Source: a virus. Taken from it: a stretch of 50,300 bases of DNA. Under the pieces are notes generated by a model. It searched no databases. It saw only the letters and a program-made list of their open reading frames with translations, and was not told the DNA's origin. Shown piece by piece: positions 19,879 to 48,874 of the stretch. Position 1 is the first letter of the stretch, and every line of letters starts with the position of its first letter. A program made the translations under genes and the position numbers. The stretch lies in IMG/VR virus record IMGVR_UViG_3300006121_000011, positions 1-50,300 of that record; one strand, written 5' to 3'.

Positions 19879-20169
19879 ATGCCATGCCAATCACTCAACG
19901 CAGGAATACTTACCTCAAGAAAACGCACGATCAAGACGCGCCGGAAAACATCTATAAAGCCGTTTCTTGTTTTGGCCATGCTCTTACTTTCCTTTGTGGG
20001 AGGCTGGAGATCGCACAAGCCGGAAACAATTATCATAACCAAAATAGAAACACGCTACGAAAAAACACCCGCTTTTTTGCCTCTGCCCAAAACCCGCAAT
20101 CTAAAACGTCAAATTGATACGCTGGCAGCGGCAATACCGGAAAAATTACTGCAACCAATGGGGAAATAA
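19879..20169 (+). CDS. single-pass membrane protein
   Basis: 96 residues, one base after the upstream stop, with GGGGGAATAAA before the ATG. A basic N-terminus (SRKRTIKTRRKTS) precedes a membrane span at about 27-43 (PFLVLAMLLLSFVGGW), then a Pro- and Lys-rich tail. The orientation is probably N-in. Role unknown. Confidence 0.6.
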   Translation: MPCQSLNAGILTSRKRTIKTRRKTSIKPFLVLAMLLLSFVGGWRSHKPETIIITKIETRYEKTPAFLPLPKTRNLKRQIDTLAAAIPEKLLQPMGK

Positions 20170-20170
20170 A

Positions 20171-20743
20171 ATGGCCAAGCTATACGTCACTCTTGAAGCA
20201 ATACGCGACAAACAACCATGCGAGGATGGATGGCATATACTTTTAGAGCATTTGGGCAAAACAAAAGCTGATAATGAGCCGCTTGCTTTAAGCGAGATAT
20301 TGGAAAGCAACAAAATTTACGATGCAATTTGGTGTTTACGCGCATTGCCTGAACAATATGACAATCGGGTTCGCTTATTTAATTGCGATGTTGCCGAACA
20401 CGTTTTACATTATTTTACAAACAAATATCCATACGACAATCGCCCAGCCGAAGCTATTAGAATAGCGCGGTTGTTCGCAAATGGGCAGGCCACGCAAGAG
20501 GAATTAGATGTTTCTGCCGCCGCCGCTAAGGCTGTTATTGTTGATCGGGCTGTTATTGTTGATCGGGCTGTTCGGGCTGCTTTTTGGGCTGCTTGGGCTG
20601 CTTTTTGGACTGCTAATAATGTTACTTTGGTTGTTGTTGCTGCTGCGAATGCTGTTTCTTTTGCTGCTGCTGATGAAGGTAGAGTCGCTCGGGCTGCTGA
20701 AAGGGAATACTTAAAAGAACTGTTTATTAAACATTTTTGTTAA
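20171..20743 (+). CDS. early protein with Ala-rich tandem repeats
   Basis: 190 residues from ATG at 20171 (an upstream ATG overlaps the previous gene). The N-terminal domain reads like a recurring phage/plasmid family: MAKLYVTLEAIRDKQPCEDG, WHILLEHLGKTKADNEPLAL, then WCLRALPEQYDNRVRLFNCD and RPAEAIRIARLFANGQ. The last third is Ala/Trp/Val-rich with near-repeats (AAFWAAWAAFW). Family members typically end in such tracts. Molecular role unknown. Confidence 0.65.
   Translation: MAKLYVTLEAIRDKQPCEDGWHILLEHLGKTKADNEPLALSEILESNKIYDAIWCLRALPEQYDNRVRLFNCDVAEHVLHYFTNKYPYDNRPAEAIRIARLFANGQATQEELDVSAAAAKAVIVDRAVIVDRAVRAAFWAAWAAFWTANNVTLVVVAAANAVSFAAADEGRVARAAEREYLKELFIKHFC
20531..20566 (+). repeat. 18-bp tandem duplication
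   Basis: Two exact copies of an 18-base unit beginning GCTGTTATTG (20531-20548, 20549-20566), encoding AVIVDR twice, inside the Ala-rich tail of the gene at 20171. In frame, so length variants would remain translatable. Confidence 0.85.
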
Positions 20744-25381: not shown

Positions 25382-27397
25382 ATGACAAAGAAGTATGAGC
25401 TTACAAAAGAACATAAGGCCATGTTTCCTGCTTGGCGGGATAAATGGATTGCAAATGCTATGTCAACAAAGGCTATGGATGATGAAGAAAGAGAAAAATG
25501 TCGCGAGGCTGTTAAATCTTTGTATAGATCAGCGAATCTTACGCCGCCGCCAGATCATAGGATTGTTTTTGTGCCTTCACCATTTGTTTTACGTTTTGCC
25601 GCAGGGTTTGCTTGTGCAATTTGGTACATGAAAAATAATAAGACAAAAAGTGTTGATGTTGCGACCCGCGATGCGATCGACGATTCGACCCGCGATGCGA
25701 CCAGCGATGCGACCCGCGATGCGATCGACGCTGCGACCCGCGATGCGACCGGCGCTGCGACCTATCATGAAACCGTTGATGCGATCGACCCTGCTACCGG
25801 CGCTGCGATCGACGATGCGATCGACACTGCGACCTACGTTGCGATCGACACTGCGACCTACGATGCGACCATTGTTGCGACCCGCGCTGCGATCGACGTT
25901 GCGACTCACGCTGCGACCCGCGATGCGACCCGCTATTCGATCGACGATGCGACCGACGATGCGATCGGCGCTGCGACCTATCATGAAACCGTTGATGCGA
26001 TCGGCGCTGCGACCGACGCTGCGACCCGCGCTGCGACCGGCGCTGCGATCGACTATGCGACCGAAGATTCGATCGACGATGCGACCAGCGATGCGACCCG
26101 CGATTCGATCGACGATTCGACCGGCGCTGAGACCTATCATGAAACCATTGATGCGACCATTGCTGCGACCGTTGCTGCGATCGACACTGCGACCTACGTT
26201 GCGACCGGCGCTGCGACCTATCATGAAACCGTTGATGCGATCGGCGCTGCGACCCGCGATGCGACCGGCGCTGCGACCCGCGCTTTGACCCGCGATGAGA
26301 TCGACGATGCGACCGACGATGCGACCCGCGATGCGATCGACGCTGCGACCCGCGATGCGACCGGCGCTGCGACCTATCATGAAACCGTTGATGCGATCGA
26401 CCCTGCTACCGGCGCTGCGACCATTGCGGCGACCATTGTTGCGACCCGCGCTGCGATCGGCGCTGAGACCCGTGCTGCGACCGAAAATGCGACCTATCAT
26501 GAAACCGTTGATGCGATCGACGATGCGACCGACATTGCGACCTGCGATGCGACCTATCATGAAACCGTTGATGCGATCGACGCTGCGACCGACGCTGCGA
26601 CCCGCGATGCGACCGGCGCTGCGACCCGCGCTGCAATGGATAAGAAGAAAAAAGGCAAAAACAATTGGTTTAATTTAGATGTTTCACTGATGGTGAACTT
26701 GTCTAAAAAATTAGGAGTTGGCGAGTTTGGATTAAAATGTTGCGTTGATTGTTATTGGAGGATGTACCAAGGTGGAAATCAATGGTCTGGATGGTCTGCG
26801 TTTCTGACATTTTTTAGATATATTGCCAAACTACCACTGGATTATTCAAAATTTGATGCTTTTGAATATCTTTCTGAACATAGCGGACCCCGTATTATGC
26901 ACAAAGAATTTTGCATGATTAGTGATCGTCCTGAGATATTAAAAGTTGATGACCAGAATCGTCCTCATTCCGAGAATGGACCTTTTTGCAAATGGCGTGA
27001 TGGTACAGCGTTATATGCTTGGCATGGAATATATATTCCCGAATGGTGGATAACAAATAAAGATGAGTTGACACCAGAAATTGCCTTGAAGTGGGAAAAT
27101 GTAGAACAAAGGAGGGCTGCTTGCGAAATGTTGGGATGGGCAAATGTTTTAGAACATCCTAGCTTAAATCCTAAAATTATAAACGAAGATCAGCCTCATA
27201 TCGGAACACTTATTGAGGTGGATTTGCCCGATGCTAAAGGCCAATGGTTTCTTAAATATCAATGTGGAACTGGAAGATGGTTTGCTGAAAGCGTCAATGA
27301 TAAATCGTTTAATACGGCTCTAAAGGCCAATGCTGGCGGGAATGGGTGGCGCGGCGTTGGTAATCCAGAGGACTACATACCCTTTTATCGCACTTAA
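25382..27397 (+). CDS. DUF6745-like protein with a giant tetrapeptide array
   Basis: 671 residues in three parts. Residues 1-90 resemble the start of DUF6745 proteins (LYRSANLTPP, FVPSPFVLRFAAGFACAI). Residues 95-418 are 81 consecutive tetrapeptides of form [TI]-x-x-[A/S/E] with no insertion or deletion. Residues 419-671 resemble the rest of DUF6745 (RPHSENGPFCKWRDGTALYA, WHGIYIPEWWI, EQRRAACEMLGW). The array thus looks like an insertion between two halves of one family domain. Role of DUF6745 is unknown. Codon use in the array (ACC, GCG, ATC) differs from the AT-rich genome. The family name is from memory of motifs. Confidence 0.65.
   Translation: MTKKYELTKEHKAMFPAWRDKWIANAMSTKAMDDEEREKCREAVKSLYRSANLTPPPDHRIVFVPSPFVLRFAAGFACAIWYMKNNKTKSVDVATRDAIDDSTRDATSDATRDAIDAATRDATGAATYHETVDAIDPATGAAIDDAIDTATYVAIDTATYDATIVATRAAIDVATHAATRDATRYSIDDATDDAIGAATYHETVDAIGAATDAATRAATGAAIDYATEDSIDDATSDATRDSIDDSTGAETYHETIDATIAATVAAIDTATYVATGAATYHETVDAIGAATRDATGAATRALTRDEIDDATDDATRDAIDAATRDATGAATYHETVDAIDPATGAATIAATIVATRAAIGAETRAATENATYHETVDAIDDATDIATCDATYHETVDAIDAATDAATRDATGAATRAAMDKKKKGKNNWFNLDVSLMVNLSKKLGVGEFGLKCCVDCYWRMYQGGNQWSGWSAFLTFFRYIAKLPLDYSKFDAFEYLSEHSGPRIMHKEFCMISDRPEILKVDDQNRPHSENGPFCKWRDGTALYAWHGIYIPEWWITNKDELTPEIALKWENVEQRRAACEMLGWANVLEHPSLNPKIINEDQPHIGTLIEVDLPDAKGQWFLKYQCGTGRWFAESVNDKSFNTALKANAGGNGWRGVGNPEDYIPFYRT
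25664..26635 (+). repeat. 81 x 12-bp in-frame tandem array
   Basis: 972 bases = 81 units of 12, no frame slips. Unit consensus AYC-NNN-NNT-GCG (Thr/Ile, variable, variable, Ala). The octapeptide TYHET[VI]DA occurs seven times. Units 5-12 (25712-25807) and 56-63 (26324-26419) are identical 96-bp blocks. GATC occurs at nearly every ATC unit, far above chance. The GC content is well above the flanks. Confidence 0.95.
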
Positions 27398-27412: not shown

Positions 27413-27832
27413 ATGACAGAAGTAATGTTAACAGAAGAAATGTTTTCAACAGGCAAACCTTTTGCTCAAGGCGAAGTTTTGATCTGGATGAAAAAATACG
27501 CCCCAAAAGAAATTTTGGAAAAAGTTGCAGCTTTGAAAAATATGGTCGACATGAAATTGGAAAACGACCAATTAATTCTTGGCCATAGTGAAACCGGTCA
27601 CCACCATGTTTTGGAGCCGGTTAGAAAAGATGTTCATGTTTCTAAAGTTGCTCAAGCTTTAATTGACTTGGCTAATGATAATTTTGTTAACCTTAAACTT
27701 TTGGAGCCTTGCGAGATCATCCATCTTCGCGGTTTTGATACTCATAAATCGATTGTTTTACCTGCTGGTGAATACATTCGAGGATTGCGTGAAGAACAAA
27801 CCGTTGAGGGTTGGGTTCGAGTTGCTGATTAA
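27413..27832 (+). CDS. hypothetical protein of a phage/alphaproteobacterial family
   Basis: 139 residues, ACGGAGAG upstream. It contains QLILGHSETGHHHVLEP and a final section PAGEYIRGLREEQTVEGWVR ending VAD, a pattern I recall from conserved proteins in phages and alphaproteobacteria. Function unknown. Lies between the array gene and the ATPase. Confidence 0.55.
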   Translation: MTEVMLTEEMFSTGKPFAQGEVLIWMKKYAPKEILEKVAALKNMVDMKLENDQLILGHSETGHHHVLEPVRKDVHVSKVAQALIDLANDNFVNLKLLEPCEIIHLRGFDTHKSIVLPAGEYIRGLREEQTVEGWVRVAD

Positions 27833-47738: not shown

Positions 47739-48874
47739 TAACCAACTCCGGTTGTGCTTGCCGTTGGATAAAAGTTAAAAGCATTTGTGTTATTTGTGGC
47801 AGGATTGTAATTAGAGAAATTAGCTTGTGGGCCATTATAAGAAGTGGTTCCCAATTGTTGGGCAAAACTAGGCAATTGGCTGGCCGGTGTATATGGTTTA
47901 TTAAAATTTGTTTGGAAATTTTGATTTTGCAAAGTTCCGCTGGCTCCGGGGCCAAATAATTGTTGCCCGGCGTATGAACCCAAGGCACCGCCAGCACCTT
48001 GTGAAAGATTTTTGGTTGTTATGCTATCAAGAAAACTTGGACTTGATGTTTCGCCACCCGGCAAACTCATGCTTCCTAATTGAGGTTGCATTTTCAAACC
48101 ATTCGCCGTTGCCGCTGAAGTTGAATCTGCTGCTGCACCAGTTGTTGCGCCGCTATTACCTACCAAATTTCCAACTGTATTATTAGGACTACCTAAAACA
48201 GAACCAAGCCCCCAACTTCCCAAACCGGCTAATGCGCCACTTTCTAAAGCCTGCGTTGGTTTTTCTCCAGTGGCAACTCCACCTACGGCAGAACCAGCCG
48301 CAGCGCCTAATGGCCCACCAAAAACACCGCCAGCAGCACCCAATGCCATCGGCAGGAAACTTGACCAAAAATTATATTCATGTAACCCAGTTTGTGGATT
48401 TGTACTTGATTGTGGCGAACCTACTGTAAATTGTTCGGGAGAAACACCTTTTTTGGCGTATTCAGATTTTAACGTAGCTAAAACTTTAGGAGTCTGCAAT
48501 TCGGGGGGAACAGTTTTTTCTCCGGGGGTTAAATGTGCAATTGTTGTGTCACCCATGCGCCCAAGAGCAGATAATTCTTGCTCTGTAAATCTAATTTGTT
48601 GGGGCGTCATATGTTGAGGTTGTGCTGGTTGACCGGGCTGTTGTTGCCGTTGCGCCATTATTTGTTGCATGAGAGCCATTTGTTGCGGCGACATTTGGGC
48701 AGCACCTTGTGGCGGCATACCTTGCGGCGGCATACCCTGTGGTTGCATACCTTGCGGCGGCATGGGCGGTTGTGAAGCCGAATTAATTAAATTAGGTGGC
48801 GCAAACCCTTGCTGTTGCACTAATTGTTGAAACGCTTGCATATTTTGAGGTGTTTGTTGTGGCATTGGTTGCAT
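47738..48874 (-). CDS. virion/ejection protein with Pro-Gln repeats
   Basis: 378 residues. The N-terminus has PPQGMQPQGMPPQGMPPQG repeats. The middle reads QELSALGRMGDTTIAHLTPG and EQFTVGSPQSSTNPQTGLHE, as in ejection-associated proteins of uncultured podoviruses, and a Gly/Ala-rich region follows (LGAAGGVFGGPLGAAAGSAV) that may insert into membranes. Confidence 0.65.
   Translation of the reverse strand: MQPMPQQTPQNMQAFQQLVQQQGFAPPNLINSASQPPMPPQGMQPQGMPPQGMPPQGAAQMSPQQMALMQQIMAQRQQQPGQPAQPQHMTPQQIRFTEQELSALGRMGDTTIAHLTPGEKTVPPELQTPKVLATLKSEYAKKGVSPEQFTVGSPQSSTNPQTGLHEYNFWSSFLPMALGAAGGVFGGPLGAAAGSAVGGVATGEKPTQALESGALAGLGSWGLGSVLGSPNNTVGNLVGNSGATTGAAADSTSAATANGLKMQPQLGSMSLPGGETSSPSFLDSITTKNLSQGAGGALGSYAGQQLFGPGASGTLQNQNFQTNFNKPYTPASQLPSFAQQLGTTSYNGPQANFSNYNPATNNTNAFNFYPTASTTGVG
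48704..48763 (-). repeat. four 15-bp tandem repeats
   Basis: Four 15-base units (CCTTGCGGCGGCATA and variants, plus-strand view) encoding PPQGM/QPQGM inside the gene at 47738-48874. In frame. Confidence 0.85.

What the first reader, a model, noticed from the sequence alone, without database searches (positions are those of the whole stretch)
25664..26635. 81 perfect 12-bp units inserted in a DUF6745-like gene
The repeats occupy 972 bp with no indel, forming [TI]xxA tetrapeptides, with 96-bp identical blocks (25712-25807 and 26324-26419), seven TYHET[VI]DA octapeptides and unusually dense GATC. Codons are GC-rich against the AT-rich genome. The array splits a family domain. It could be a hypervariable spacer, a phase-variable length element, or a DNA-level element (iteron-like or Dam-rich) that happens to be translated.
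Basis: partly seen in the sequence, partly recalled or inferred. Interest (0 to 1): 0.75.

Follow-up and report, generated by a model that had tools for sequence, protein, structure and literature searches.

The report
Hypervariable tetrapeptide array in phage protein
A phage protein of unknown function carries 81 back-to-back copies of a four-amino-acid unit; relatives in more than a hundred other phages and prophages carry 6 to 177 copies with one amino acid per unit kept diverse by selection, a layout so far tied to a job only in one mycobacteriophage protein whose repeat number tunes it against bacterial defences.

Summary
The array is real: 81 in-register 12-bp units (25664-26635) in one 671-aa ORF of a tailed-phage contig. 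They are not identical copies (about 70% alike). The array lies in a loop between a conserved N-terminal domain and the Pfam DUF6745 region, and array-less homologues join the same flanks. It is a family trait: of 162 distinct homologous loci, 124 carry tetrapeptide arrays of 6-177 units with differing motifs (xAAT, xSAT, xSQV, xDQL...), and the array was lost (or gained) at least six times. Phages 99.5% identical outside the array differ inside it. Within units, three codons are nearly frozen, third bases included, while the first two bases of codon x vary. Fresh single-unit variants fall on all 12 bases; variants that spread are overwhelmingly amino-acid changes at x (odds ratio 12 against synonymous, P=6e-15). 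So selection keeps x diverse; targeted mutagenesis, iterons and Dam sites are not supported. A small His-rich gene accompanies the family in 141/163 loci. The closest known case is mycobacteriophage Tweety gp54, with the same array style but unrelated flanks; its repeat number tunes counter-defence (PMC9262239, PMC8549241). I propose the same job here; this is inferred, not shown.

The parts
25382..27397 (+). 671-aa ORF: N-terminal domain, tetrapeptide array, DUF6745 C-terminal region
25382..25663 (+). N-terminal conserved domain (aa 1-94), helical, also present in array-less homologues
25652..25663 (+). degenerate lead unit (VDVA) just before the array
25664..26635 (+). 81 in-register 12-bp units, aa 95-418, hypervariable tetrapeptide array
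25705..25808 (+). first copy of the longest exact repeat inside the array (104 bp)
26317..26420 (+). second copy of the longest exact repeat inside the array (104 bp)
26636..27394 (+). C-terminal region (aa 419-671)
26846..27232 (+). Pfam PF20530 DUF6745 match (aa 489-617)
27413..27832 (+). conserved partner gene (139 aa, ...GHSETGHHHVL...H..DTH...), immediate neighbour of the DUF6745 gene in most homologous loci

Best explanation
This is a protein-level hypervariable tandem array in the loop of a two-part phage protein (N-terminal helical domain + DUF6745 region). Shown by sequence: units are gained, lost and shuffled in 12-bp steps (unequal recombination or slippage), so the frame never breaks. 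Three residues of each unit are held fixed, and one (x; secondarily the next) is kept diverse (mostly R, D, Y, G, A, W, H, E). Inferred: the array is a flexible or helical arm whose length and exposed x residues set how the flanking domains, with the adjacent His-rich partner protein, engage a target that differs between hosts. By analogy with mycobacteriophage Tweety gp54, the most likely target is a host or prophage anti-phage defence, so repeat number and x composition act as a fast tuning knob for counter-defence.
For: Family-wide arrays at the same site: 124 of 162 distinct loci, 6-177 units, median 29 among 67 complete arrays. Array-less homologues have joined flanks and a confident compact fold. 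Near-identical phages differ in array content and length: L070/L073 (99.6% flanks, at least 34 against 18 units) and L061/L063 (99.45%, 24 against at least 31 units). Variation is confined to bases 1-2 of the x codon: minor fraction 0.52 and 0.34, against 0.20 at base 5 and at most 0.06 at the other nine bases. Selection test: variants spread to at least 3 units versus singletons are x-nonsynonymous 253:45, synonymous 17:37, p3+p4 nonsynonymous 20:34; odds ratio x against synonymous 12, P=6e-15; singletons lie on all 12 bases. Independent losses or gains and motif changes on the tree. Conserved partner gene in 141/163 loci, 114 of them directly downstream. Tweety gp54 has the same array style: 12-bp unit, frozen third bases, variable NNG/NNC codons, GC peak; 13-48 units in seven isolates with 98.6-100% identical N-domains. 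Its repeat-number mutants overcome prophage defences (PMC9262239, PMC8549241).
Against: No functional data exist for any DUF6745 protein in the library searched. Tweety gp54's flanks are not homologous to this family, so the functional link is by analogy only. No match to known defence-system models. The order of x residues is nearly random, without charge or coil periodicity, which would also fit an order-insensitive spacer. The array was lost several times, so it is dispensable in some phages. The array fold is predicted as helix only at low confidence (pLDDT 34-76). The window's own array is more degenerate than most (T/I, two variable positions).
Confidence: 0.45

Rival explanations
1. Order-insensitive spacer: a low-complexity, near-neutral minisatellite linker between two domains. 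Length is free to drift, and x is only required to be soluble (polar, charged or aromatic).
For: x order near random, no coil or charge periodicity, complete array lengths not restricted modulo 3, 4 or 5; repeated loss of arrays; low-confidence fold.
Against: Neutral drift predicts the same ratio of spread to single variants at synonymous sites as at x; observed 17:37 against 253:45. Three codons stay fixed in amino acid while x uses a narrow set recurring across lineages with different third bases (R, D/E, Y/W/H, G).
Confidence: 0.25
2. Sticker-and-spacer polymer: R, Y/W and D/E stickers spaced by inert tripeptides drive condensation or multivalent binding, for example in a replication compartment; here the gene lies between primase, RusA-like and Sak4/SSB/exonuclease/helicase genes.
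For: Composition of x (R 23%, D 19%, Y 13%, G 11.5%, W 6%, Lys almost absent); order insensitivity; position inside the replication and recombination block.
Against: No direct evidence of condensation. Replication-linked context was not shown in other loci. The order-insensitive and recognition models predict the same sequence statistics here.
Confidence: 0.12
3. Programmed mutagenesis of the x codon (DGR-like adenine mutagenesis or another targeted mutator).
For: x codons look like NNC or NNG, as in retroelement-diversified genes.
Against: Single-unit (recent) variants fall on all 12 bases (24,18,12,13,14,7,5,6,7,13,3,11) with only mild excess at x; adenines in fixed codons (ACC, GAT) are not mutated; none of the larger ORFs scanned in the window resembles a reverse transcriptase (not every ORF was scanned).
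Confidence: 0.03
4. DNA-level element that happens to be translated: iterons, replication origin or Dam-methylation cluster.
For: Dense GATC in this window (21 in 972 bp) and position in a replication module.
Against: GATC is absent from arrays of the closest relatives, L002, L003 and L013. The DNA unit differs between lineages (GCG ACC, GCC ACG, CAA GTG, CAG CTC ...) while the protein period of 4 is kept. Array-less relatives exist.
Confidence: 0.02
5. Assembly artefact of a metagenome contig.
For: Contigs of near-identical phages break at the array (L001, L005), and 52 of 124 array-bearing homologues are cut inside the ORF, so exact unit number may be wrong.
Against: Arrays occur in isolate and complete records (L007 circular phage, L008 prophage record, Pararhizobium L089, Rhizobium L091), and 67 complete arrays are in frame across unrelated assemblies.
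Confidence: 0.02

Closest known systems
Mycobacteriophage Tweety gp54 (and Che8 gp57, PMC gp51; phrog_3416)
   Same: Unique N- and C-terminal regions flank 13-48 tetrapeptide units of 12 bp; two residues frozen, third codon bases frozen, one or two positions variable from NNG/NNC codons (G/W/Q/R and S/Y); GC peak; unit number varies between otherwise identical genes (PMC2884959). Repeat-number mutants tune counter-defence (PMC9262239, PMC8549241).
   Different: Flanking domains are unrelated by BLASTP, HHalign, Pfam and PHROG. Motif is AA-x-y rather than xxAT, and there is no DUF6745.
Pfam DUF6745 (PF20530)
   Same: The C-terminal part of the window protein is a member (E=5.5e-14).
   Different: Pfam describes only the C-terminal domain; the array and its dynamics are not part of the family definition, and no paper in the library names the family.
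HNWD NOD-like receptors of Podospora (WD40 arrays with high internal conservation) and PRDM9 zinc-finger arrays
   Same: Evolutionary mode: near-identical repeats kept alike by concerted evolution, a few positions hypervariable under diversifying selection, unit-number polymorphism (PMC12222747; PRDM9 papers seen as abstracts).
   Different: Units there are 40- or 28-residue folded domains with known ligands (own knowledge); here the unit is 4 residues, with unknown fold and target. Resemblance of mode only.
Bordetella phage BMP-1 bbp36 VR2 (as cited in PMC2884959)
   Same: In-gene tandem repeats whose number differs between phage isolates; role unknown.
   Different: 24-bp element; not compared by sequence here.
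Imm5_like (PF21805)
   Same: Another gene of this window (20114-20743) has a short Ala-rich repeat stretch.
   Different: Different family, period not 4, not related to the DUF6745 protein in any search here.

Membership tests
DUF6745 (PF20530) | Profile match above the curated cut-off | tested here: met
   52.4 bits against cut-off 27
DUF6745 (PF20530) | Conserved N-terminal region upstream, joined directly in array-less members | tested here: met
   alignment A3, array-less model pLDDT 90.8, pTM 0.78
Tweety gp54-type counter-defence protein | Homologous N- and C-terminal flanks | tested here: not met
   BLASTP matches only the low-complexity array; HHalign probability 6.6%; different PHROGs
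Tweety gp54-type counter-defence protein | 12-bp tetrapeptide array with frozen third codon bases and variable unit number | tested here: met
Tweety gp54-type counter-defence protein | Repeat-number change alters escape from a defence system | not testable with these tools
   Shown for Tweety in the literature (PMC9262239, PMC8549241); no experiment on DUF6745 proteins
Diversity-generating retroelement target | Variation concentrated at template adenines by targeted mutagenesis, with a reverse transcriptase nearby | tested here: not met
   Recent variants are spread over all 12 bases; no reverse transcriptase among the larger ORFs scanned
Iteron / Dam-rich DNA element | Conserved DNA-level unit | tested here: not met
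   DNA unit and GATC not conserved between relatives
Beta-solenoid repeat protein | Fixed number of units per coil, visible as a lag or as a restriction on array length | tested here: inconclusive
   Weak positive lags at 3, 4, 6 and 8 without a single period; lengths not restricted modulo 3, 4 or 5; model gives helix at low confidence

The most novel reading that the evidence does not exclude
A widespread, independently evolved class of phage 'tunable array' proteins: the DUF6745 protein and its His-rich partner form a conserved two-gene counter-defence module in which a tetrapeptide array with one selected residue per unit works as a rapidly rewritable recognition arm, matched to different host defences by unit number and x sequence.
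Probability: 0.3. Interest if true: 0.85.

Novelty: new variant of a known kind. Interest (0 to 1): 0.62.

Why it matters
Tetrapeptide arrays of this style were known to have a role in one mycobacteriophage protein, where repeat number tunes escape from prophage defence. Here the same style appears on an unrelated scaffold in well over a hundred phages and prophages. It comes with a sequence signature of selection on one residue per unit, unit turnover faster than flank divergence, and a conserved partner gene. That makes a testable case that short in-gene repeats are a general fast-adaptation device in the phage-defence arms race, hidden because arrays often break short-read assemblies and because the protein is annotated only as a domain of unknown function.

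Tried and rejected
Solenoid register: lag autocorrelation of x identity, charge and aromaticity and array length modulo 3, 4 and 5 gave no single coil period. Function by fold: no PDB match for the window model or the array-less model, only DUF6745 relatives in the viral library, no PDB sequence relative. Defence-system models: no informative hit (the REase_II hit of L074 lies inside its repeats). Partner gene: no Pfam family, PHROG 27831 of unknown function. Dam or iteron reading rejected. DGR-like mutagenesis rejected. Apparent length difference L022/L023 was withdrawn: it is only a difference of contig start. Apparent frameshifted arrays (L089, L176, L191) may be assembly errors or tolerated indels, not resolved. 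Host-genus search for DUF6745 around the Rhizobium genome found 2 of 148 genomes, so it is rare and probably prophage-borne there. The primary paper on Tweety counter-defence (Dedrick 2017) is not held in the library, so two reviews were used.

Full report
Observation. The window is an IMG/VR virus record of 50,300 bases with tailed-phage genes (terminase, portal, major head protein, tail fibre, endolysin). The ORF 25382-27397 (+) encodes 671 aa. Bases 25664-26635 are 81 units of 12 bp, all in frame, without indels. Lag-12 identity is 0.70, against a maximum of 0.41 in 1000 codon shuffles. The seven TYHET[VI]DA octapeptides are there, and the long identical block is 104 bp (25705-25808 = 26317-26420). 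The copies are about 70% alike, so 'perfect' is right for register only.

Place in the protein. Pfam DUF6745 matches aa 489-617, behind the array. The N-terminal 94 aa are conserved in the family. Homologues without an array (L042, L046, L047, L053, L075, L079, L080, L086 and others) join the same N-terminal region to DUF6745 through a short non-repetitive linker of roughly 15-80 residues. An AlphaFold model of the array-less L079 protein is confident (pLDDT 90.8, pTM 0.78), with a weak loop at about residues 69-81 where the array sits in others. In the window protein the flanks are confident (mostly >90), while the array is drawn as long helices at pLDDT 34-76, which I do not trust as a fold. 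Neither model has a PDB match, and the viral library finds only DUF6745 proteins and unnamed fragments.

The family. Four scans of viral contigs and one of genomes, with two phage records and a genome search, gave 162 distinct homologous loci. Of these, 124 carry a period-4 array at the same place. Motifs differ between lineages: xAAT, xSAT, xNAT, xQAT, xDAT, xSAV, xNAV, xSQV, xAQV, xDQV, xDQL, xGQL, xSSL and more. Sixty-seven complete arrays have 6-177 units, median 29. On a tree of the C-terminal region, absence of an array needs 7 changes (at least 6 forced by well-supported branches), and motif type also changes repeatedly. The array is therefore a common state of the family that is lost or gained repeatedly, not a freak of this phage. 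Contigs often end inside it: 52 of 124 array-bearing loci are cut within the ORF. Two contigs identical to the window are also broken there (L005 ends 2 bp before the array, L001 begins inside it). The exact count of 81 in this contig thus rests largely on one assembly.

Turnover. L070 and L073 are 99.6% identical over 4.9 kb, yet L070 has at least 34 units and L073 has 18, with shuffled content. L061 and L063 are 99.45% identical, with 24 and at least 31 units of different order. L060 and L072 (89-93% identical) have wholly different arrays. The array evolves far faster than its flanks, in whole units, so the frame is kept.

Which residue varies. I phased units by the T/V/L position, not by variability. 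In 46 arrays (1333 units) the minor-base fraction along the 12 bases is 0.52, 0.34, 0.06, 0.04, 0.20, then at most 0.035. Bases 1-2 of codon x thus vary, base 5 (second residue) somewhat, and everything else, synonymous third bases included, hardly at all. x is R, D, Y, G, A, W, H or E in most units; lysine is practically absent. Arrays whose x codon ends in G use G/R/W/E, and those ending in C or T use D/R/Y/H/G: the same chemistry by different codons.

Mutation or selection. I compared variants seen in one unit of an array with variants spread to three or more units (98 arrays, 2774 units). Single-unit variants fall on all 12 bases (24,18,12,13,14,7,5,6,7,13,3,11). Spread against single is 253:45 for amino-acid changes at x, 17:37 for synonymous changes and 20:34 for changes at positions 3 and 4. 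The odds ratio of x against synonymous is 12 (P=6e-15). Mutation is thus roughly even, but diversity at x is what is kept. This excludes a targeted mutator as the main cause and argues against a neutral minisatellite. Caveats: arrays share ancestry, so the P-value is optimistic, and old x polymorphism retained through homogenisation would give the same pattern; either way x diversity is favoured.

DNA-level readings. GATC is dense only here among the close relatives, because GCG is followed by ATC (Ile). The closest relatives have none, and the DNA unit is not conserved. Most arrays are open in four to six reading frames, a by-product of a stop-free 12-bp unit.

Neighbour. A small protein (consensus ..QGd..i.....HSEtGHhHv.....H...dtHe....pG.Y..rrqrEytpeGwRrV.D) is found within 3.5 kb in 141 of 163 loci, directly downstream in 114. 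In the window it is 27413-27832. It has no Pfam family and matches PHROG 27831 of unknown function. It accompanies array and array-less forms alike, so it belongs to the DUF6745 scaffold rather than to the array.

Closest known system. Mycobacteriophage Tweety gp54 was described with 12-bp tetrapeptide repeats whose third codon bases are invariant, 48 units in Tweety, 26 in Che8 and 15 in PMC, and 'selection for variation' was suggested (PMC2884959). Later reviews report that escape mutants against the Phrann and MichelleMyBell prophage defences change the number of these repeats, tuning a counter-defence (PMC9262239, PMC8549241). I repeated the unit analysis on gp54 and its relatives: 48, 38, 30, 18, 16, 13 and 18 units with N-domains 98.6-100% identical, frozen third bases, variable NNG/NNC codons and a GC peak. 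The flanks are not homologous to DUF6745. So the window protein is not a member of that family, but it has the same array design on another scaffold.

Mechanism proposed. Shown: a protein-level array, unit turnover, and selected diversity at one residue per unit, in a loop of a conserved two-part protein with a conserved neighbour. Inferred: array length and x residues set how the flanking domains reach or bind a variable target. By analogy with Tweety this is most likely a host or prophage defence component. The x order is nearly random, so a composition-driven, order-insensitive arm (spacer or sticker polymer) remains the main rival.

Verdict. A real, reproducible and selected hypervariable array; a new variant (new scaffold, wide distribution, selection evidence, partner gene) of a design known from one mycobacteriophage family. 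Function remains to be tested.

Noticed in passing
window 20114-20743 (+): An Imm5_like (PF21805) / PHROG 18326 gene with its own short Ala-rich repeat stretch (18-bp unit AVIVDR..., then AAFWAAW); a second repeat-bearing gene of unknown role in the same phage.
   Followed up: partly
window 27413-27832 and 141 of 163 homologous loci: Uncharacterised His-rich small protein (HSETGHHH...) nearly always next to the DUF6745 gene; a conserved two-gene module without Pfam entry.
   Followed up: partly
window 25589-26560 (-) and 25650-26288 (+): Long open frames antisense to and in the +2 frame of the array; a by-product of stop-free 12-bp units, seen in most arrays (four to six of six frames open).
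   Followed up: yes
L066 (229-921) and L091 (759-1373): C-terminal regions share about 88% DNA identity, but array motif (xNAT against xAQV) and N-terminal parts differ: recombination inside the gene swaps arrays and domains between phages.
   Followed up: partly
L089, L176, L191: Arrays that appear to change reading frame or unit type midway (L191: GSSx, then KSxL, then xAQV), either tolerated indels or assembly errors.
   Followed up: no
L174: Array of 177 tetrapeptide units in one ORF (1089 aa), the longest found.
   Followed up: no
L097 (Obscuribacterales MAG): The DUF6745-like C-terminal region follows a different repeat (leucine-rich-like 'LVSLGNLQSV' units), suggesting that this region is joined to several repeat types.
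   Followed up: no
window 48704-48763: Short 15-bp tandem repeat (ACCTTGCGGCGGCAT, four copies) in a predicted 378-aa gene on the minus strand.
   Followed up: no
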